Shown here piece after piece: positions 7,879-39,757 of a stretch of 64,000 nucleotides of DNA. This DNA comes from Lacihabitans soyangensis (GTDB lineage Bacteria; Bacteroidota; Bacteroidia; Cytophagales; Spirosomataceae). The translations under genes were made by a program, and so were the position numbers. The stretch lies in assembly GCF_024343775.1 (NCBI RefSeq), contig NZ_RJUF01000192.1:1-64000 (forward strand), read 5' to 3'. The notes below the pieces were generated by a model. That model had not been told where the DNA came from, did no database searches, and saw nothing but the letters and a program-made list of their open reading frames with translations. The first letter of the stretch is position 1. Each line of letters opens with the position of its first letter.

Positions 7879-10263
7879 TTAGAATTTGAAATTGTATGTA
7901 ACTGCAGGAATAATAGCGGCAAAAACCGAGTATTTTACTGCCTCAGTTTTGGAAGGGTCATCAGGATTTTGACGCACATACACCGAAAAAGGATTTTTTC
8001 TGTTATAAACATTATATACCGAAAACACCCACTCACTTTCGCCTTTGCCAAACAAAGCATGTTTATTTTTACGGGTAGCTGAGTAGTCCAGTCTATGGCT
8101 GTTTGGAATTCTATAAGTATTTCTATCATCGGTATAATTGTGAGGAAGTGCAATTCCTTGCCACGCAAACTTATTGGTCGGGAAACTTGCCGGGGTGCCA
8201 CTGGAGAAGGATAACGTTGTACCCATAGACCATTTTTTGGTCAAGTCAAGAATTCCAACCACCGATATATTATGGGCTTTGTCAATTCTGCTGGCGTACC
8301 AATCGTTGTTATTTAGCCCATCAATTTTTCTTTCTGTTCGTGCTAGCGTATAACTCACCCAACCATTAAGTTTGCCTTTATTTTTTTTCACAAAAAACTC
8401 CGCACCATAAGCTCTACCGATACCGTACATGAGGTCGCCCTCAACTGCTGGATTAAGTAACAAATCCGCATTTCTTATGTAATCAATCTGGTTTTTTAGA
8501 GTTTTGTAATAAACTTCTACGGAACTTTCGTAAAGGTTTTCAGAAAAATTCTTGAATAAGCCCAAAGCTACTTGATCGGAGAGTTGCGGCTTGATGTTGT
8601 TACTGCTTGGTGTCCAAACGTCAAGAGGTGACGAAGCCACGGTGTTAGAGAGCAAATGAATGTACTGTGCCAATCTATTGTACCCTAGTTTTATAGAGGT
8701 GCTGTTGTTTATTCCTAAATTCAGGGCAATTCTTGGCTCCAAGTTGCCATAGTTTTTGATGGCTTCTCCTTTTTCAGACGTTCGAGTTGAGGTTATTGCT
8801 TTTCTCTCTCCAGGTGTAGTATTTTCATTAAAAGTGTAAACCGTTCCAGGTCCCATGTAGCTGTAGAAAGAATACCTCAGGCCATAGTTAAGAGTAAGTT
8901 TGTCAGTCAGTTTTTGCTCATTACCAACATACAGAGCCGATTCCATGGCATATTTACTATCTAAGCCAATGGAGCGAGATTGCCCACCCGAAACCGCAGT
9001 GGCTTGTCCAGGATTAAAAGTGTAATAGATTGCTTGTCCTCCAAAGGATATGGTGTTTTTGGAGTTTAGATAATAATTAAAATCAGGTTTTATGCTGTAA
9101 TTCAATATGTTGGACTTCCATTCAAAAGAATCTTGGTCATTTTCATTTGACAAATCAGAGTCGAGTGAGTAGTCATAGTTTGAGTAAAAGACGGTTGTGT
9201 TCAGGAACAATTTATTGTTGAAAACATGGTTCCATCGAAAAGAAGTGGTGGAGTTTCCCCAGTTGAATCCAAAGTCAGCTCCGAACACATCCCGACCGAA
9301 GTAGCCAGAAAGAAAAATAGTATTTTTGTCGTTTATTTTGTAATTGGTTTTGGCCGTAAAATCATAGAAGTAGAATCTTGACCCTTTCAAGTCGGAGTTT
9401 AGAAATGGCTTTGCCAGAATGTCGATATATGATCTTCGCAAGGCGACTATAAAACTTCCTTTTTCTTTTAGGAATGGTCTTTCATAAGCAAATCTTGAGA
9501 AAATTGTTCCCAATCCACCCGAGAATTCAGGTTTTTTCGAATTTCCCTCCTTCATTCTTACGTCTAATATAGAAGAAACTCTTCCTCCGTAGGTGGCAGG
9601 TATTCCTCCTTTTATCAGTTTAACGTCTTTCACTACATCGGGGTTAAAAACCGAGAAGAATCCGAACAGGTGGGAGGAATTATAGACAGGGGCCTCGTCC
9701 AGTAAAACTAAGTTTTGATCTATTCCGCCACCTCTCACATTAAAGCCAGATGATCCCTCTCCAACGGAGCTTACACCGGGTAGAAACTGTATGCTCCTTA
9801 TAACATCTACTTCCCCAAGAAATGCGGGCATCTTTTTGATGGTTTTCATTTCCACTTTATTCACCGACATCTCCACATTTTTCACATTGTCATCCTCTCG
9901 TTTTCCTGTCACTACTACTTCATCAAGAAGCTTTCCTTCTTCAGTGAGCTCGAAGTTCAGTGTTTGATTATTGTCTAGCGTATATTCTTTTGAAACAGAG
10001 TTGTAGCCTATGTAGCTTACAACAAGTGTGTATTTTCCTTGTGGTGCCGTGATGGAGTAAAAACCGTAAACATTGGTACTTGCACCTATTTTAAGTTCTT
10101 TCAAAAACACGTTTACCCCTATCATGCCTTCGCCATTTTTGGCATCACTTACTTTACCGCTTATTGTAAAATTAGTTTGAGCATTGCATGGATTAGCTGT
10201 GGCAAAAACGAAAAGGAAAAATAGAAAGTGCTTAAAATTAAAAGGTTTTGTAAAGTATGACAT
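7879..10263 (-). CDS. TonB-dependent outer-membrane receptor
   Basis: About 794 aa. A signal peptide ends near PCNAQ, followed by a carboxypeptidase-regulatory-like domain (FTISGKVSDAKNGEGMIGVNVFL, about residues 30-115). The plug domain comes next (FLPGVSSVGEGSSGFNVRGG, about 205-225; GGIPATYGGRVSS further on), then a long beta-barrel ending in VTYNFKF with the terminal aromatic typical of barrels. It imports an unknown ligand using TonB energy. I start it at the ATG at 10263 (MSYFTKPFNFKHFL): the longer reading from 10398 adds 45 residues that precede the signal peptide. Co-transcribed with the DUF4249 lipoprotein. Confidence 0.92.
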   Translation of the reverse strand: MSYFTKPFNFKHFLFFLFVFATANPCNAQTNFTISGKVSDAKNGEGMIGVNVFLKELKIGASTNVYGFYSITAPQGKYTLVVSYIGYNSVSKEYTLDNNQTLNFELTEEGKLLDEVVVTGKREDDNVKNVEMSVNKVEMKTIKKMPAFLGEVDVIRSIQFLPGVSSVGEGSSGFNVRGGGIDQNLVLLDEAPVYNSSHLFGFFSVFNPDVVKDVKLIKGGIPATYGGRVSSILDVRMKEGNSKKPEFSGGLGTIFSRFAYERPFLKEKGSFIVALRRSYIDILAKPFLNSDLKGSRFYFYDFTAKTNYKINDKNTIFLSGYFGRDVFGADFGFNWGNSTTSFRWNHVFNNKLFLNTTVFYSNYDYSLDSDLSNENDQDSFEWKSNILNYSIKPDFNYYLNSKNTISFGGQAIYYTFNPGQATAVSGGQSRSIGLDSKYAMESALYVGNEQKLTDKLTLNYGLRYSFYSYMGPGTVYTFNENTTPGERKAITSTRTSEKGEAIKNYGNLEPRIALNLGINNSTSIKLGYNRLAQYIHLLSNTVASSPLDVWTPSSNNIKPQLSDQVALGLFKNFSENLYESSVEVYYKTLKNQIDYIRNADLLLNPAVEGDLMYGIGRAYGAEFFVKKNKGKLNGWVSYTLARTERKIDGLNNNDWYASRIDKAHNISVVGILDLTKKWSMGTTLSFSSGTPASFPTNKFAWQGIALPHNYTDDRNTYRIPNSHRLDYSATRKNKHALFGKGESEWVFSVYNVYNRKNPFSVYVRQNPDDPSKTEAVKYSVFAAIIPAVTYNFKF

Positions 10264-33970: not shown

Positions 33971-33997
33971 TAAAAAAAGGAGGTCAAAGACCTCCTT
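33971..33997 (-). terminator. Stranded original terminator of the tRNA-Met gene
   Basis: AAGGAGGTC (33977-33985) pairs with GACCTCCTT (33989-33997), with a T run on the minus strand. It abuts attL. No leftward gene precedes it now. Before the element inserted it would have followed the tRNA directly, so it is the displaced tRNA terminator. Confidence 0.75.
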
Positions 33998-34012
33998 GAG
34001 TAGCGGGAACAG
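33998..34012. repeat. attL, 15-bp direct repeat
   Basis: GAGTAGCGGGAACAG is identical to 39682-39696. The flanking bases differ on both sides, so the repeat is exactly 15 bp. Confidence 0.85.
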
Positions 34013-34151
34013 TGCTAACACCTACTTAATTTGATACTTTCTCAAACCTTTGTAAAATGTCATAAAAACACTATTCTTAATGCTTTTGAAGGCTATTTTG
34101 TCTTTTAGATTGTTTAACTACATTAATCTAAATATTGTATTTATTAACAAA

Positions 34152-34176
34152 AATGCGTAACCATTTGCGTAACCAA
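34152..34176 (+). repeat. Left arm-type repeat with two TGCGTAACC copies
   Basis: A 25-bp sequence with TGCGTAACC at 34154-34162 and 34166-34174. It recurs with one mismatch at 39603-39627 in the same orientation. It lies 140 bp inside attL and just upstream of the integrase gene, so it may also overlap the integrase promoter. It is a likely binding site for the integrase arm-binding domain. Confidence 0.65.
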
Positions 34177-34222
34177 TTAATCTAATCATTATCTTTGAAT
34201 AGCAATTAAAAAAGATACTATT

Positions 34223-35485
34223 ATGGCAAATGCCTTTTTTAGATTACGAAAAGCCAAAGATAACAAAGAACAATTGATTTATGTAGGTTATAGATTTGGA
34301 CAAGACCAGTTAATTCATTCAACAGGCATCAAAGTTTTGCCTAAACATTGGGATTTTAAAAAGTCACGTGTCAAAAACATAGTGGAGTTTTTCCCTAAAG
34401 ACGAAGTGAATGCTTTTCTTACTGACTTAGCAAATTTTATAAATACTACCGCAACGATTTATAAAACTCAAAAACAGGAGTTAAGCAAAGAAGTACTTAA
34501 AAACGAAATAGACCTTTTTATAAATCCTGAAAAGGCATTGAAAGATAAGCCTAAAAACTTATTTGCTTTTATCGAAAAGTTTATTCTTGATTCAAAAGAA
34601 GGGAGGAGGCAAATTGACGGCAAAGAGGTCAATGAGCGTACAATTAAAAGATATAGCACCACCTTTTCAATAATTAAAGACTTTCAGTGCCAATATGAAA
34701 GGGTTATTGATTTCAACAACATAGATATTGATTTCTATAAGGATTTCAACAACTACATGACCAAAGTAAAAAACTATGCACCAGCGACAATGGGCAAGCA
34801 TATCTCCACACTAAAGACTTTTCTAAAGGAAGCAACAGAGGAAGGTATAAATACGAATTTGAAGTTTCAAAGTAAGGCTTTTAAAGTGGTTGAAACAGAA
34901 TCAGATACGATTGCACTTTCTGAAAATGAACTACTTGAAATGTACCAGTTAGATTTGTCTCAAAACGCTAGATTGGAAAAAGTAAGGGATTTATTTATCA
35001 TAGGTGCAAATACAGGACTTAGATTCTCAGATTTTACAGATATTCAAGCAGAAAACATTAAAAAGGACGCTAACGGTTATTCCTTGGATATTATCCAATT
35101 CAAGACCAAAAATAGGGTTATAGTGCCATTAAATGATATAGCGTTAGAGATACTTCAAAAATACAATTTCAAGCTTCCTCCTGCCATAAGTAACCAAAAA
35201 TTCAATGGTTACATTAAAGAGGTTGCAATTTTAGTTGAAAGCTTACACGACAAATACACCAAAGTTGTAACTAAGGGAGGAAAAACAGAGGAGATTGTAC
35301 TTTGCAAGTGGGAAATGGTGTCAAGCCATACAGGCAGAAGAAGCTATTGTACTAATGCTTATGAACGTGGAACACCTGCAATTTCATTAATACAGATTTC
35401 AGGACATAAGACCGAAAAAAGCTTTTTGAAGTACATTAAGACATCAAAAGCAAAACACGCTGAAATAGTTAGAAAACATCAATAA
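34223..35485 (+). CDS. Tyrosine recombinase / integrase
   Basis: 420 aa, typical of Bacteroidetes integrases with an arm-binding domain, a SAM-like core-binding domain and a catalytic domain. Residues about 1-90 are the arm-binding region (MANAFFRLRKAKDNKEQLIYVGYRF). Residues about 110-215 are the core-binding domain (LFAFIEKFILDSKE...PATMGKHISTLKTFLKEA). The catalytic set is complete: Arg in GANTGLRFSDFTDI, Lys in the FKTKNRVIVPL hairpin, SSHTGRRSYCTNAY (H-x-x-R), SGHKTEKS, and the nucleophilic Tyr in FLKYIKTS. It should integrate and excise the element between the two 15-bp repeats. The next gene starts 3 bp after its stop. Confidence 0.95.
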   Translation: MANAFFRLRKAKDNKEQLIYVGYRFGQDQLIHSTGIKVLPKHWDFKKSRVKNIVEFFPKDEVNAFLTDLANFINTTATIYKTQKQELSKEVLKNEIDLFINPEKALKDKPKNLFAFIEKFILDSKEGRRQIDGKEVNERTIKRYSTTFSIIKDFQCQYERVIDFNNIDIDFYKDFNNYMTKVKNYAPATMGKHISTLKTFLKEATEEGINTNLKFQSKAFKVVETESDTIALSENELLEMYQLDLSQNARLEKVRDLFIIGANTGLRFSDFTDIQAENIKKDANGYSLDIIQFKTKNRVIVPLNDIALEILQKYNFKLPPAISNQKFNGYIKEVAILVESLHDKYTKVVTKGGKTEEIVLCKWEMVSSHTGRRSYCTNAYERGTPAISLIQISGHKTEKSFLKYIKTSKAKHAEIVRKHQ

Positions 35486-35488
35486 AAT

Positions 35489-36403
35489 ATGGGAAAGGAA
35501 TTTACACCAAACATTGAGCATTTTAAAAATTTTGAAAGCTTAAATTTTAAAGAAAGAATTGAACTATGCTTTGTGAAAAACAATCTTGATACCTTCAATA
35601 TTGGTATAGATGAAAATAATGTGTACGCAATTTCAGGAATAAAATATTTAGATTTGTATCAAGTGCCTGAGGGTAAAAAATATTATTATTTACACCCTAA
35701 AAGCGAAGAAGAAGAAAATATAATAATTAGCATTTTTGAGGATAATGATTTCTTTATAGGTAGAAATTTCGGCTCATTTGATTCGAAAGTTGACCAAGTA
35801 TTATCATTTGACTTTTTAAAAGAAAATTGGCGAATTAGGTTTGAAAAAGCCCCACTAAAAGACGAATTTCTATCTGAAGAAATCATACAAATCAAATATA
35901 GAATTGAGCATAGCAATGGTATATTAAACCATTTTAAAGAGTTTTATGACTTAGGTGTAAGAAAAGGGAAAAATGGAGGTATGATAAATCATTATTTCTG
36001 GCAATTGTATTTTAAATATTATGAAGCCTATAGCATTTTTTCAAGTTTTCATACTTTGGTTAGTTGTTTGAAAACATATTATAATGGTTATTTTATGTTT
36101 GAATATTATGCCTTTTTAAGAAAAGGAGGTATTGAGGAATTAAATCTCAGTTATAAAGCAAAAACAGATTCTAAAATAATTAAATCTCCGACAAAAACAG
36201 AAAAACTTTTAATTCCTAATTTAGTAAAAGAGACAACTAAAAATCCAAATATTTCAAAAACTGATTTAGCCCAATCGATGGAAAGGAGCGGAGTATGTAG
36301 AGAGAGAACGGTTTTTGCATTTTTCAAAAAAATAGACATGGGAAAAGTTAAGATTAATGACTTTACTGCAATTTACCTAGAAAAATACTCTTCAATCAAC
36401 TAG
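35489..36403 (+). CDS. Unknown 304-aa protein co-transcribed with the integrase
   Basis: It starts 3 bp after the integrase stop and is therefore probably part of the same transcript. No signal peptide or membrane span is evident. The middle (about 150-215) is rich in aromatic residues (NHYFWQLYFKYYEAYSIFSSF). The last 70 residues read like a helix-turn-helix (LLIPNLVKETTKNPNISKTD, then LAQSMERSGVCRERTVFAFF), so DNA binding is possible. I do not recognise the family. It could regulate integration or excision, or be accessory cargo. Confidence 0.6.
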   Translation: MGKEFTPNIEHFKNFESLNFKERIELCFVKNNLDTFNIGIDENNVYAISGIKYLDLYQVPEGKKYYYLHPKSEEEENIIISIFEDNDFFIGRNFGSFDSKVDQVLSFDFLKENWRIRFEKAPLKDEFLSEEIIQIKYRIEHSNGILNHFKEFYDLGVRKGKNGGMINHYFWQLYFKYYEAYSIFSSFHTLVSCLKTYYNGYFMFEYYAFLRKGGIEELNLSYKAKTDSKIIKSPTKTEKLLIPNLVKETTKNPNISKTDLAQSMERSGVCRERTVFAFFKKIDMGKVKINDFTAIYLEKYSSIN

Positions 36404-36434
36404 CTTATATTCAAACACTTAGACTGTCTATTCT

Positions 36435-36470
36435 ACTGAAAATTTTCAGTTTACTTCATTAATTTTCAGT
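36435..36470. promoter_or_regulatory. Putative operator: 16-bp palindrome plus a half site
   Basis: ACTGAAAATTTTCAGT (36435-36450) is a perfect palindrome. Its right half AATTTTCAGT recurs at 36461-36470, 20 bp on, or about two helical turns. It lies 60-95 bp before the HTH gene at 36530. This suits a repressor or excisionase operator, or short iterons for the replication protein. Confidence 0.55.
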
Positions 36471-36529
36471 GGATTACTATTTTTTTTGCATATTAATTTG
36501 TGTTCAAGTTTAATAAAAACAAGAATACA

Positions 36530-36799
36530 ATGGGCAATCCTTTCGAAATTATTGAAGCTAAGCTTTCTTCAATTGAAATCTATCTACAAAAGCTTAAACC
36601 AGTTGAATTGCCTCCACTAAAAGAGGACGAACGATTCCTAGACACCAAACAAGTAGCAGAACTTTACGGAGTTTCTTCTGTAAGTATTTGGCAATGGGAA
36701 AAGGCTAATATTCTAAAGTCTTACAGAATCGGGAATCTTAAAAGATTCAAATATTCAGAATTGTTAGAATCTCCAAAACTTATTCAAAGAAGAAAATGA
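36530..36799 (+). CDS. Excisionase-like helix-turn-helix protein
   Basis: 89 aa from the ATG at 36530 (MGNPFEIIEAKL); an in-frame GTG at 36500 would add 10 residues. Residues about 38-88 are a MerR-like HTH_17 domain: FLDTKQVAELYGVSSVSIWQWEKANILKSYRIGNLKRFKYSELLE. This is the usual pattern of Bacteroidetes excisionases and element regulators. A short helix precedes it. The stop overlaps the next start as ATGA, so the two genes are translationally coupled. Confidence 0.85.
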   Translation: MGNPFEIIEAKLSSIEIYLQKLKPVELPPLKEDERFLDTKQVAELYGVSSVSIWQWEKANILKSYRIGNLKRFKYSELLESPKLIQRRK

Positions 36800-37107
36800 G
36801 AAATATAGATTCTTTTTTGCAGAAAAGTTCGGGAGAGGACAAGGCAAACGAAAACCACTTTATTGCTCAATTTAACAAAGTGTATTTGGAGTATTTTGAA
36901 GAGCCACAATCAATGAAGTCAGTTGCTAAAAAGCTAGAAATTGATAGGAGTAGTGTTTGTTGGTACAATAGACTAATGAGATTAAATGGTAGAATTTGGG
37001 TTGCAAAAAAAGCTAGGTGTCCATACTCTAAAAGAATAGTATTTTACTATACTACAAATCCAAGATTAGTACCTCCTTCAAGTCAATTAAGTCTATTTGA
37101 CCAATGA
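36796..37107 (+). CDS. Small winged-helix-like protein of Bacteroidetes mobile elements
   Basis: 103 aa. The middle MKSVAKKLEIDRSSVCWYNRLMRLNGRIWVAKKARCPYSKRIVFYYTTNP looks like a winged helix: a recognition helix followed by a basic wing. The ending PPSSQLSLF resembles short proteins I associate with Bacteroidetes integrative elements, from memory only. It probably binds DNA. Both ends overlap neighbouring genes by ATGA, placing it in a three-gene coupled unit. Confidence 0.65.
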   Translation: MRNIDSFLQKSSGEDKANENHFIAQFNKVYLEYFEEPQSMKSVAKKLEIDRSSVCWYNRLMRLNGRIWVAKKARCPYSKRIVFYYTTNPRLVPPSSQLSLFDQ

Positions 37108-38117
37108 TAGATTTTATCAAAATTGAAAGGCTAAAAAGTGGTGTTAGGGGAAACCCACTTTTAAATGGAAAATGGATTCTTACAAGTAACGAGGATGCAG
37201 TTTTTTTAAAAGAGGAGGCTATTTACAACAAGCTAACGTTTGAAACCAAAAAGGCCAAAGAGTCCGATAAATACTATTCAAAAGTTAGTGGGAGTATTCA
37301 TTATTATTTCAATGGAGGTTTACACAATTACAATGATTTTTCATTTACTAACATTGTGGAGGTTGTTGATGAAATCAGCGAACAGTTCGAAATTGACCAT
37401 GCTAACGAGTTGAATAACCTTGAATTTGGGGTAAACGTTAAATTACCATTTGAGCCAAAACTTATTCTTGATAACCTAGTGACCCATAAGGGGAAAAAAT
37501 TTTCTCATATTACCAATCAAGGTAAAAATTACCATCAGTGCGAACACACTCAATTTATTATCAAAATGTATCACAAAAGTTTGCAGTTTGGTTTAGCTGA
37601 AAACATACTCAGGTTTGAAATTAAGGTTTTCAAAATGCAGTACCTCCACCGAAATGGAATAGATATAAAGAGCCTAAAATGCTTAAAAAACAAAGCCATT
37701 TATGAGCCGCTAGGGAGGCTTTTATTAAAGGTCTTTGATGAAATCTTAATTGATTGTGAGAATCTTGATACAAGCGTATTAACGGATGCCGAAAAGGCTA
37801 CTTACCTATTGGCAACGAAACCAAATACTTGGAAAAGAAATAATAGACTAGATTCAAAAGGGCAAAAACAACTCCAAAGGTTATTAGAAAAGTATCATAA
37901 ACTAATAAATCGGCATACTAAAGGAACAACCAATAAACACAAAGTTGAAGAATTGATAGAAGAAAAATGGAATGAATTGTCCGAAATTTACCACTCCGCA
38001 AAAACAATAATTCAGGATAACATTGTCCAATATTTACTATTTAAGTATAATGTAAGTTTCGGACATAAGCCATTTATCCACTACCAAAGGCCAAGTATTT
38101 ACAACAGAGATTTTTGA
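37104..38117 (+). CDS. Putative replication initiation protein
   Basis: 337 aa, beginning MIDFIKIERLKSG. The segments ELNNLEFGVNVKLPF, FIIKMYHKSLQFG and NILRFEIKVFKMQYLHRNGI have the layout of replication initiators of the phage X / gpII kind, where a 'KxYxK ... LRxExxxxxxxxL' core is common. That similarity is remote and judged by eye. The C-terminal third is basic and helical (KRNNRLDSKGQKQLQRLLEKYHKLINRH). No HUH motif is obvious. If correct, the excised circle could replicate. It is translationally coupled to the upstream gene. Confidence 0.5.
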   Translation: MIDFIKIERLKSGVRGNPLLNGKWILTSNEDAVFLKEEAIYNKLTFETKKAKESDKYYSKVSGSIHYYFNGGLHNYNDFSFTNIVEVVDEISEQFEIDHANELNNLEFGVNVKLPFEPKLILDNLVTHKGKKFSHITNQGKNYHQCEHTQFIIKMYHKSLQFGLAENILRFEIKVFKMQYLHRNGIDIKSLKCLKNKAIYEPLGRLLLKVFDEILIDCENLDTSVLTDAEKATYLLATKPNTWKRNNRLDSKGQKQLQRLLEKYHKLINRHTKGTTNKHKVEELIEEKWNELSEIYHSAKTIIQDNIVQYLLFKYNVSFGHKPFIHYQRPSIYNRDF

Positions 38118-38145
38118 AAAGAACAGAGATTTACAAAAAGTAGAA

Positions 38146-38547
38146 ATGAAAGGATTTACAAATAATATTCATGGACGACCTAAAGGTGTACCAAACAAAG
38201 TGACCGCTGAATTACGGTCTTTGCTTCACGATTTTGTGACGGAGGAATGGGAGGCTATAAAAAGTGATTTTAGACAATTACAGCCAAAGGAACGCCTTAT
38301 CTATTACGAAAAGATTTTGCAGTATTGTATCCCTAAGAATAGCAAATCAGGACTTGATTCAGAGGAGGCAAAGATTGAACAACCCATTTTTGAGACAATC
38401 CACTGTTATGAGATTGATTTGGAAAAAATCCAATATCAAGACTTAAAAGAAATGATTCAGGATTCTGAAATATTTATGAGTACTAGGCATAAGGCACAAT
38501 TTCGATTAGAACTGCCTGACAATCACAGACAATATGAAGCAGATTAG
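38146..38547 (+). CDS. GRPKG-motif protein of mobile elements
   Basis: 133 aa. The start IHGRPKGVPNKVTAELRSLLHDFV has an AT-hook-like GRPKG followed by a helix, a pattern I recall from many Bacteroidetes phage and element proteins. Residues about 40-65 (LQPKERLIYYEKILQYCIPK) continue it. The C-terminal half is acidic and not recognised. It may bind DNA. It lies 28 bp after the putative replication gene. Confidence 0.6.
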   Translation: MKGFTNNIHGRPKGVPNKVTAELRSLLHDFVTEEWEAIKSDFRQLQPKERLIYYEKILQYCIPKNSKSGLDSEEAKIEQPIFETIHCYEIDLEKIQYQDLKEMIQDSEIFMSTRHKAQFRLELPDNHRQYEAD

Positions 38548-38635
38548 AATAAAAAAAGTTGTAATTGGCGTTTACAATTTCATTGTTGAATACTTATCAG
38601 AATTGCTAATATTAGCAGTTTTAATTTTTGGTTGA
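38534..38635 (+). CDS. 33-aa hydrophobic peptide
   Basis: ATG at 38534 to TGA at 38633-38635, overlapping the last 14 bases of the GRPKG-motif gene in another frame. The product starts MKQIRIKKVVIGVYNFIVEY and ends LSELLILAVLIFG. It has a basic N-terminus and one membrane-spanning stretch, the profile of small membrane toxins, holins or inner-membrane regulators. Its length is near the limit for trust, but composition and coupling favour it. Confidence 0.4.
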   Translation: MKQIRIKKVVIGVYNFIVEYLSELLILAVLIFG

Positions 38636-38783
38636 TAATCTTTTAAGATAAAGATAAAATTGAGCCATAACCACCAAAAGGAAAATAATGGAGGGGTACT
38701 TCAAATCCTTAAATCAAAACACTTTGGTTACTGTAGACTCAGCAAAACAAAACCGATTCCTAATTTCGAAGGTAGGGGGTCAT

Positions 38784-39521
38784 TTACTTAAAATGGCTAA
38801 GTACTTTGTATTTTATTAAGGTATTCGTGGCTGAAAGTATTTCAATTTTTAATCCTTTAAATCCCACTAACGTACTTTCGTTCAAATCATATTGAATATC
38901 TTGTGTAAAGCTCGGTCTAGCAAGGTCATTTGAGAACTCTCGGTAAATAAATTTAATTGAATTCCCAACTTTTCCATTGTAAATAAATTCCTGTTTAAAC
39001 GATAACTCTTTATTCAAAACAACTTTTTTTTGCTTTATATCAATTAATTCTTTGGATTTAGTTGCCCTAATCAAAGCGGGGTCGGTTAGTTCTATATTCA
39101 AATCTACAGGTACTAAACTTGGTACAATTTTATAGTACTTTAAATCAGGAGAAATCATTAGAATAGAATATAAATTTTGAACATAAGATTTAACTAACTT
39201 ATCTTGTTGAACATAACATTTATCTACACAAACATAATAATTCCATTTAGCAGATTTCTGAACCAAATATAAATCAGTTGGTTCTATGCTAACAAATGCA
39301 CCAAATGTACTTTTTTCTAATGACTTATTTAAATGGATACCATCATAAACCTCCTGAATAGTTTTATCGACCAATGTAGAACCAATTTCACCTTCTGATT
39401 CACTACCAATTTCAGGAAAGAAAATCATTTCTTTGGAAGGTTTTAGAATTTGGGCAATCAAGAAATTAGTATTCGATAGAATGAGGAATAAAGAAAAAGC
39501 GAGGATTAGTCTTTTTATCAT
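38784..39521 (-). CDS. Secreted cargo protein of unknown function
   Basis: 245 aa with a signal peptide (MIKRLILAFSLFLILSNTNFLIAQ). The mature part is strand-rich with no motif I recognise. It has two close cysteines (YVCVDKCYV, near residue 95). It is the only leftward gene in the element and lies next to attR, the usual place for accessory cargo. Its transcription is independent of the rightward module. It might act on the host envelope, but nothing in the sequence shows how. Confidence 0.65.
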   Translation of the reverse strand: MIKRLILAFSLFLILSNTNFLIAQILKPSKEMIFFPEIGSESEGEIGSTLVDKTIQEVYDGIHLNKSLEKSTFGAFVSIEPTDLYLVQKSAKWNYYVCVDKCYVQQDKLVKSYVQNLYSILMISPDLKYYKIVPSLVPVDLNIELTDPALIRATKSKELIDIKQKKVVLNKELSFKQEFIYNGKVGNSIKFIYREFSNDLARPSFTQDIQYDLNESTLVGFKGLKIEILSATNTLIKYKVLSHFK

Positions 39522-39602
39522 GTTTATTTTAGTTTTATGCTAAGGTCTAAAAAAAAAGCAAATTTATAAAGTAACAGACAAAAAAGATTGGCAATTTATT
39601 TA

Positions 39603-39627
39603 AATGCGTAACCGTTTGCGTAACCAA
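39603..39627 (+). repeat. Right arm-type repeat with two TGCGTAACC copies
   Basis: TGCGTAACC at 39605-39613 and 39617-39625, matching 34152-34176 with one mismatch and the same orientation. It lies 55 bp inside attR. Confidence 0.65.
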
Positions 39628-39633
39628 GAGCAA

Positions 39634-39675
39634 TAAAAAAAGTCGTAACTAATTGATAAGCAATTGATTACGACC
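39634..39675 (-). terminator. Element-encoded replacement terminator for tRNA-Met
   Basis: On the minus strand, 10 bases after the tRNA discriminator base, GTCGTAA pairs with TTACGAC (39668-39674 with 39642-39648). The stem extends through AATTG/CAATT and ends in seven T. It lies inside the element. Confidence 0.75.
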
Positions 39676-39681
39676 TTTAAA

Positions 39682-39696
39682 GAGTAGCGGGAACAG
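39682..39696. repeat. attR, 15-bp direct repeat in the 3' end of tRNA-Met
   Basis: GAGTAGCGGGAACAG, identical to 33998-34012. Twelve of its bases are the last 12 bases of the tRNA, so the gene stays intact after insertion. Confidence 0.85.
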
Positions 39697-39757
39697 GACT
39701 CGAACCTGTGACCTTCGGGTTATGAGCCCGACGAGCTGCCAACTGCTCCATCCCGCG
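39685..39757 (-). tRNA. Initiator tRNA-Met (CAT anticodon)
   Basis: A complete 73-nt cloverleaf on the minus strand starts CGCGGGATGGAGCAG. The anticodon stem-loop is CGGG-CTCATAA-CCCG, the T arm is ACAGG-TTCGAGT-CCTGT, and the acceptor 3' side is TCCCGCT with discriminator A. The three G:C pairs in the anticodon stem and the unpaired first position (C1:T72) mark an initiator tRNA. CCA is not encoded. The 3' end is the element's attachment site. Confidence 0.95.

What the first reader, a model, noticed from the sequence alone, without database searches (positions are those of the whole stretch)
33998..39696. Compact 5.7-kb integrative element in initiator tRNA-Met with no recognisable transfer genes
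The sequence shows a 15-bp direct repeat at both ends, the right copy being the tRNA 3' end, and a complete tyrosine recombinase. It also shows an excisionase-like HTH, a coupled winged-helix-like protein, a putative replication initiator, a GRPKG-motif protein, a 33-aa hydrophobic peptide and one secreted cargo gene. From family knowledge, larger Bacteroidetes elements carry Mob/Tra or phage genes; this one shows none. I infer a minimal replicating and integrating unit that depends on a helper for transfer, or an undescribed satellite.
Basis: partly seen in the sequence, partly recalled or inferred. Interest (0 to 1): 0.8.

Follow-up and report, generated by a model that had tools for sequence, protein, structure and literature searches.

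The report
Small tRNA-integrated element with rolling-circle initiator
A 5.7-kb stretch of DNA inserted itself at the start-tRNA gene of a Bacteroidota bacterium and belongs to a common but apparently undescribed family of small mobile elements that carry their own likely DNA-nicking enzyme and probably borrow another element's machinery to travel.

Summary
A 15-bp repeat (33998-34012 / 39682-39696) flanks a 5.7-kb block at initiator tRNA-Met; four of nine other same-genus genomes show the site clearly uninserted. Tyrosine recombinase, excisionase-like HTH and paired putative arm sites sit where expected. The block is one of a family: its 337-aa protein has matches in 40 of 198 related genomes (own included; 13 of 296 across the phylum). 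Int and xis lie upstream of it in 34 of 43 loci read. In 19 of the 27 loci with a tRNA nearby, a tRNA-end repeat longer than in any of 100 shuffles delimits the element. One tRNA-Arg site in two near-identical regions holds two different members. The 337-aa protein has no Pfam replication match, but its model matches Rep_trans rolling-circle initiators and its invariant residues fit their active site; such proteins act as relaxases in Firmicutes. So 'no transfer genes' is too strong: no HUH relaxase or T4SS, but a candidate initiator/relaxase. Best reading: a replicating, integrating, helper-dependent, IME-like element. Transfer is not shown and three helper markers are missing from its genome; a phage satellite is not excluded. 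The element also brings a new terminator for the tRNA it separates from its native one.

The parts
33977..33997 (-). native intrinsic terminator of the initiator tRNA, now separated from it, left of attL
   Evidence: Hairpin plus T-run (fold -13.4 kcal/mol, z -3.5); a like hairpin sits directly behind the tRNA in uninserted same-genus genomes.
33998..34012 (.). attL core, 15-bp direct repeat
   Evidence: beats 100 of 100 shuffles.
34151..34176 (.). left putative integrase arm sites (two copies of NTGCGTAACC, 12 bp apart)
   Evidence: 26-bp direct repeat, 96% to the right copy; subterminal repeats also in several relatives, e.g. L048, L050, L054, L065, L070, L075, L081. Function inferred.
34223..35485 (+). 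tyrosine recombinase (integrase), 420 aa
   Evidence: Pfam PF17293, PF13102, PF00589; phrog_1 6.6e-24.
35489..36403 (+). 304-aa protein in the variable slot between int and xis; function unknown
   Evidence: No relative in 197 other genomes; hhalign to 34 slot proteins all below 1% probability; one of 35 slot proteins matches RteC PF09357 at 7e-7, not this one; AF2 model useless, pLDDT 34.9.
36429..36476 (.). palindromic region with CTGAAAATTTTCAG plus a further AATTTTCAG, putative operator or origin before the xis operon
   Evidence: Inverted repeat 88%; role inferred.
36500..36799 (+). excisionase-like HTH (GTG start 36500, or ATG 36530)
   Evidence: HTH_17 5.9e-7, phrog_66 4.5e-9; family present upstream of rep in 39 of 43 loci.
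36796..37107 (+). 103-aa putative DNA-binding protein, probably translationally coupled
   Evidence: phrog_1123 3.3e-4; homologue in the same slot of L080.
37104..38117 (+). 337-aa Rep_trans-like rolling-circle initiator, candidate relaxase
   Evidence: AF2 pLDDT 89.6; Foldseek top hits RepDE 4cwe/4cwc 4.8e-8/1.7e-7 and RepSTK1 4cij; invariant K154, Y156, K158, R170, E172.
38146..38547 (+). 133-aa GRPKG-motif protein
   Evidence: phrog_15261 4.4e-4; homologues after rep in L080 and L084.
38534..38635 (+). 33-aa hydrophobic peptide ORF, may not be a gene
   Evidence: Present; no family match at E<=0.1 (best phrog_33261 at 0.15).
38784..39521 (-). putatively secreted 245-aa cargo protein
   Evidence: phrog_1353 5.6e-33; 83% homologue elsewhere in same-genus G298.
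39602..39627 (.). right putative integrase arm sites
39638..39678 (-). element-borne replacement terminator for the tRNA
   Evidence: Fold -15.2 kcal/mol, z -5.8, followed by a U-run.
39682..39696 (.). attR core, at the tRNA 3' end
39684..39757 (-). initiator tRNA-Met(CAU), target gene kept whole
   Evidence: ARAGORN.

Best explanation
A complete site-specific integrative element of a family widespread in Bacteroidota. Int recombines the 15-bp tRNA-fMet 3' end with attP, rebuilding the tRNA and giving it the element's own terminator. The xis-wh-rep operon, perhaps controlled by the 304-aa protein, drives excision. The Rep_trans-like protein then nicks one strand of the circle, maintains it by rolling-circle replication, and serves as the relaxase that hands the strand to a helper conjugation pore. 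Shown by sequence or model: insertion at the tRNA, family membership and initiator fold. Inferred: excision, replication, relaxase role and helper.
For: Direct repeat and int/xis. Uninserted sites: the joined flanks match continuously in G303, G298, G296 and G300 of 9 other same-genus genomes, and none of the 9 has a Rep match. Rep matches in 40 of 198 and 13 of 296 genomes, own genome counted in both. Int and xis upstream of rep on its strand in 34 of 43 loci. 27 of 43 loci have a tRNA nearby; 19 of these have a tRNA-end repeat that delimits the element, each longer than in any of 100 shuffles, against 0 of 3 bystander tRNAs. Same tRNA-Arg site with 11 of 11 matched flanking ORFs 92-100% identical but Reps 26% identical, L053 and L079. 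Rep fold: RepDE and RepSTK1, the six PDB chains at E<=0.001. Active-site fit to Rep_trans: K-x-Y-x-K with Q mostly at +5, R-x-E, E-x-G-x-N and D3. Precedent: a Rep_trans relaxase is needed for mobilisation of a streptococcal IME (PMC7563843, passages).
Against: The own genome (99.9% complete) has no match to PF03432, TIGR03783 or PF05707 at E<=0.001, so no helper is seen. Co-occurrence of Rep with TraG is weak: 19 of 40 versus 45 of 158, odds ratio 2.3, p 0.02; within the family 1.8-2.0, p 0.06-0.10 with the family size estimated. No oriT or nick site was identified. No PF02486 match in any of 40 Reps at E<=0.1. Foldseek superpositions have high rmsd (7-9 A) and TM at most 0.53. Eight of the 27 loci with a tRNA nearby show no tRNA-end repeat, and the 19 were selected by having one. 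The 304-aa protein has no demonstrated role.
Confidence: 0.55

Rival explanations
1. A phage satellite: it excises on helper-phage induction, replicates with its own Rep and is packaged in helper capsids; the GRPKG protein might redirect packaging.
For: The plan int, xis-like HTH, regulator, rep and small proteins resembles satellites (recalled). GRPKG, HTH, wh and cargo proteins match phage families phrog_15261, 66, 1123 and 1353. In relatives, three accessory ORFs match PHROG tail-spike, tail-fibre or virion families (best 2e-70); three also match Peptidase_S74 in Pfam, probably the same ones. Relatives carry defence cargo: Type III and IIG restriction, DarT/macro.
Against: No terminase, portal or capsid name among the 25 families shown of 53 (Pfam) and of 90 (PHROGs) for 116 accessory ORFs; the rest of the lists was not shown. 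No relative in IMG/VR by close-match scans. For Rep one unannotated faecal scaffold is the only hit in the phage collection.
Confidence: 0.2
2. An integrative rolling-circle plasmid with no dedicated transfer: it replicates when excised and spreads by transformation, vesicles or chance mobilisation.
For: The Rep_trans fold is the pT181-type plasmid initiator fold. No HUH relaxase or T4SS recognised in the element and no helper marker in the genome.
Against: No match to Rep in 72,556 plasmid records. The family spans several taxonomic families and one site holds different members, which asks for efficient transfer.
Confidence: 0.2
3. A filamentous-phage (inovirus) remnant or satellite: Rep of gpII type and the 33-aa peptide a coat protein.
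For: Of 11 BFVD hits at E<=0.001 the two with names are Inoviridae proteins, best 1.5e-6. The 5.7-kb size and a small hydrophobic ORF fit.
Against: No Zot-type ATPase match in the own genome or among the Pfam families shown for accessory ORFs. Integration uses a tRNA-specific recombinase with an xis-like gene. The 33-aa ORF could not be tested against relatives, since the ORF set began at 45 aa.
Confidence: 0.05

Closest known systems
Streptococcal integrative mobilizable elements with Rep_trans (MobT-like) relaxase, e.g. IME_oriT
   Same: Small, integrase, direct repeats, no mating pore, Rep_trans-type protein as DNA-processing enzyme (PMC7563843, passages).
   Different: Ours has no PF02486 match, sits in a tRNA 3' end, lies in Bacteroidota, has an int-slot protein-xis-rep arrangement and no demonstrated transfer.
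NBU1/NBU2 and other Bacteroidetes IMEs
   Same: tRNA 3'-end integration in Bacteroidota for NBU1 and NBU2, integrase plus excisionase, further proteins needed for excision (PMC5704250, passages).
   Different: Those are listed with a MobP relaxase; no PF03432 match is present here in the whole genome.
pT181-type Rep_trans initiators (RepDE, RepSTK1)
   Same: Best PDB fold matches and corresponding catalytic positions.
   Different: Sequence identity 13-15%; glutamate and asparagine where Rep_trans has two aspartates, lysine where it has an arginine; own C-terminal helical region.
Phage-inducible chromosomal islands
   Same: Size and int/xis/rep plan (recalled).
   Different: No packaging gene recognised in the window element; no phage context found.

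Membership tests
Integrative element (site-specific, tRNA) | Integrase plus flanking direct repeat at the tRNA 3' end | tested here: met
Integrative element (site-specific, tRNA) | Uninserted site in relatives | tested here: met
   continuous in 4 of 9 same-genus genomes, partial in 5; three of the four carry 1-4 extra degenerate tRNA-end/terminator copies there.
Integrative element (site-specific, tRNA) | Excised circle | not testable with these tools
   No reads available.
Rep_trans (PF02486) | Match to the Pfam model | tested here: not met
   (0 of 40 Reps at E<=0.1).
Rep_trans (PF02486) | Fold of RepDE/RepSTK1 | tested here: met
   six chains at E<=0.001, TM up to 0.53, rmsd 7.4-9.0 A; predicted model, not solved.
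Rep_trans (PF02486) | Catalytic Tyr with R/K neighbours and three acidic metal ligands | tested here: met
   Y156, K154, K158, R170, E172 in 40 of 40; E107 39 of 40; D3 36 of 40. Correspondence by motif and spacing, not by superposed coordinates.
IME | Own integration/excision module and no mating pore | tested here: met
   int and xis-like gene, no T4SS family. Excision itself not tested.
IME | Relaxase or oriT used by a helper | tested here: inconclusive
   Candidate Rep_trans-like relaxase; no oriT found; transfer not testable.
IME | Compatible helper element in the same genome | tested here: not met
   No TIGR03783 or PF03432 match; a helper may be in another host.
NBU-type Bacteroidetes IME | MobP (HUH) relaxase | tested here: not met
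Phage satellite (PICI-like) | Packaging or capsid-redirecting gene | tested here: inconclusive
   None recognised in the window; in relatives only the top 25 families were shown, among them tail-spike/virion names in three ORFs.
Inovirus | pI/Zot morphogenesis ATPase | tested here: not met
   whole genome.

The most novel reading that the evidence does not exclude
A large undescribed superfamily of 5-12-kb Bacteroidota elements whose single non-HUH, Rep_trans-like protein both replicates the excised circle and acts as relaxase. It would be a main rolling-circle mobilisation lineage of the phylum, shuttling anti-phage defence genes between tRNA sites.
Probability: 0.35. Interest if true: 0.75.

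Novelty: new variant of a known kind. Interest (0 to 1): 0.55.

Why it matters
Non-canonical IMEs with a Rep_trans relaxase are described from Firmicutes in the papers seen here. This points to a counterpart in Bacteroidota that relaxase-based surveys would miss, because its initiator has no Pfam match. About a fifth of the related genomes examined have it (40 of 198, own included). Some members carry restriction or DarT/macro genes, so the family may move defence genes. The replaced tRNA terminator is a concrete example of how such elements may limit harm when they enter an essential tRNA gene.

Tried and rejected
Chance repeat: rejected, 0 of 100 shuffles reach 15 bp. A larger unrelated duplication: rejected, exact identity stops after 15 bases (81% over 26) and the site is uninserted in relatives. 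RteC identity for the 304-aa protein: not shown; hhalign below 1% to all 34 other slot proteins, one other slot protein of 35 hits RteC, structure model unusable. Plasmid origin of Rep: no plasmid record matches. Sequence search of solved structures with the Rep profile gave three weak hits (best E 0.008), none a replication protein. Viral-contig scans for rep, int, GRPKG and the 304-aa protein gave no relative; they find close relatives only. Helper test by TraG co-occurrence: weak and confounded (family size estimated from handle numbers). Cargo as part of a sister element: its 83% homologue in G298 lies in a stretch with no int, xis or rep match.

Rows dropped: the Rep alignment used 40 of 44 family ORFs (those of L017, L063 and L064 left out as split or fused). 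The accessory scan used 116 of 143 ORFs of at least 60 aa in 21 delimited elements; the 27 left out were almost all xis-family ORFs and the tandem-repeat ORFs of L075. Regions were fetched for 40 of the Rep matches; two further loci came. Two of the 21 elements (L068, L070) have repeats but no tRNA called and are not in the count of 19.
Full report
Observation. The block 33998-39696 is bounded by a 15-bp direct repeat whose right copy covers the 3' end of initiator tRNA-Met. Inside are a complete tyrosine recombinase, a 304-aa orphan, an excisionase-like HTH, a 103-aa protein and a 337-aa protein in a coupled run, a GRPKG protein, a 33-aa ORF and a divergently oriented gene with a signal-like N-terminus. 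A second, internal 26-bp repeat with two NTGCGTAACC copies lies 153 bp from the left end and about 70 bp from the right end. It is the usual place for integrase arm sites; that role is inferred. G+C is 31% against 38% on the left and 34% on the right.

Is it inserted? In the genus, 0 of 9 other genomes have a match to the 337-aa protein. The joined flanks match without a break in G303 and G298 (97%, bases 2-145 of 145), G296 (96%, 2-137) and G300 (95%, 6-135); the other five match only in part. The left-flank 317-aa gene lies beside the uninserted tRNA in G298 and G303. In G298, G303 and G296 the site also has degenerate copies of tRNA end plus terminator, about 102 bp each; the window has none. 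So the uninserted site of these three is not the exact reverse of the window.

The family. Rep matches occur in 13 of 296 genomes drawn across the phylum and 40 of 198 relatives, the own genome counted in both. Two named genomes, Joostella atrarenae and Galbibacter marinus, have them too. I read 43 loci: the window, 40 fetched stretches and the two named ones; some genomes gave two. Int lies upstream on the same strand in 37 of 43, xis in 39 of 43 and both in 34 of 43; some misses are at contig ends. A divergent 193-501-aa protein fills the slot between int and xis in 35 loci, the window included. A tRNA lies nearby in 27 of 43. In 19 of these the tRNA end is repeated exactly at the other side of the element: 13-49 bp, sizes 5.1-12.2 kb, at tRNA-Met, Arg, Thr, Phe, Leu and Glu. 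All 19 repeats are longer than in any of 100 shuffles, which 3 bystander tRNAs in the same loci are not; the 19 were picked because they have a repeat. In L053 and L079 the matched flanking ORFs are 92-100% identical in 11 of 11 cases while the Reps are 26% identical, so one site has been filled by different elements.

The initiator. The alignment of 40 Reps has five invariant residues, K154, Y156, K158, R170 and E172. No member matches a Pfam replication family at E<=0.1. The AlphaFold2 model is confident (pLDDT 89.6). Foldseek's six PDB hits at E<=0.001 are RepDE and RepSTK1, the Rep_trans structures; in BFVD, of 11 such hits the two with names are Inoviridae proteins. In RepDE (RepSTK1) the site holds R189 (R177), Y191 (Y179), K193 (K181), E196 (Q184), R212 (R194), E214 (E196), D142 (D116) and D46 (D9) (PMC4797284, passages). 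Here K154, Y156, K158, Q161, R170, E172, E107 and D3 hold the corresponding order and similar spacing (Q161 in 31 of 40, D3 in 36 of 40). The correspondence is by motif, not by superposition.

The terminators. The native tRNA terminator lies outside attL, and the element carries its own hairpin and U-run just inside attR (z -5.8). By eye on the folds, 14 of 16 elements with the tRNA at the rep end have such a hairpin with a T-rich tail inside. The simple scan found one in 13 of these 16 (two of them weak) and in 1 of the 3 elements with the tRNA at the int end (weak); outside the distal att it found one in 18 of 19. Only the two window hairpins were tested against shuffles.

How it works. Int and xis would give integration and excision. 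Rep most likely nicks and replicates the circle. For transfer, Rep_trans proteins are both relaxase and replication initiator in Tn916 and ICEBs1 (PMC5704250, passages) and relaxase in a streptococcal IME (PMC7563843, passages), so I favour helper conjugation with Rep as relaxase. This is inference. Against it, the own genome shows no match to PF03432, TIGR03783 or PF05707, and the Rep-TraG association is weak. A phage satellite and a plain integrative plasmid remain open.

Cargo. The 245-aa gene matches a phage family of unknown function, with partial hits in 34 phage records, none covering 80%. A DNA homologue (83.5% over 699 bp) is in G298. Among the accessory ORFs of the 21 delimited elements are Type III and IIG restriction enzymes and DarT/macro proteins; those calls do not say which element each comes from.

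Literature. Searches for Rep_trans with Bacteroidetes and integrative, MOBT with Bacteroidota, rolling-circle tRNA elements, RteC elements, Bacteroidota satellites and filamentous satellites listed no paper that describes this family by title, abstract or the passages I saw. The held library lacks most subscription journals. In the passages seen of the ocean survey PMC11104534, MOBT rows are from other phyla or unassigned and the one Bacteroidetes row is MOBP1. The host's name is not known to me; a Cytophagales-like Bacteroidota is my guess.

Noticed in passing
L109, L110, L111 (G298, G303, G296), downstream of tRNA-fMet: One to four degenerate ~102-bp tandem copies of the tRNA 3' part plus terminator follow the initiator tRNA; absent from the window.
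   Followed up: partly
L063, 839-aa ORF starting at 9438 in the rep-oriented locus: A single ORF joins a Rep (residues about 31-295) to a tyrosine recombinase (about 424-827), a possible natural initiator-integrase fusion.
   Followed up: partly
L073 (G311), about 13.0-17.0 kb in the rep-oriented locus: A run of repeat-derived ORFs near the element looks like a CRISPR array (reading recalled, not tested).
   Followed up: no
window 38760-39573 and L118: The cargo gene plus some upstream DNA has an 83% DNA homologue in G298, beside a transposase-like ORF (transposase is my reading).
   Followed up: yes
accessory ORFs of the 21 delimited elements: Cargo includes Type III and Type IIG restriction enzymes and DarT/macro proteins, i.e. 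anti-phage defence (the element is not named there).
   Followed up: partly
L119 (MT835707.1, faecal scaffold): An unverified 'Bacteriophage sp.' scaffold holds a family Rep with xis-like genes and several integrases, so gut bacteria may carry the family too.
   Followed up: partly
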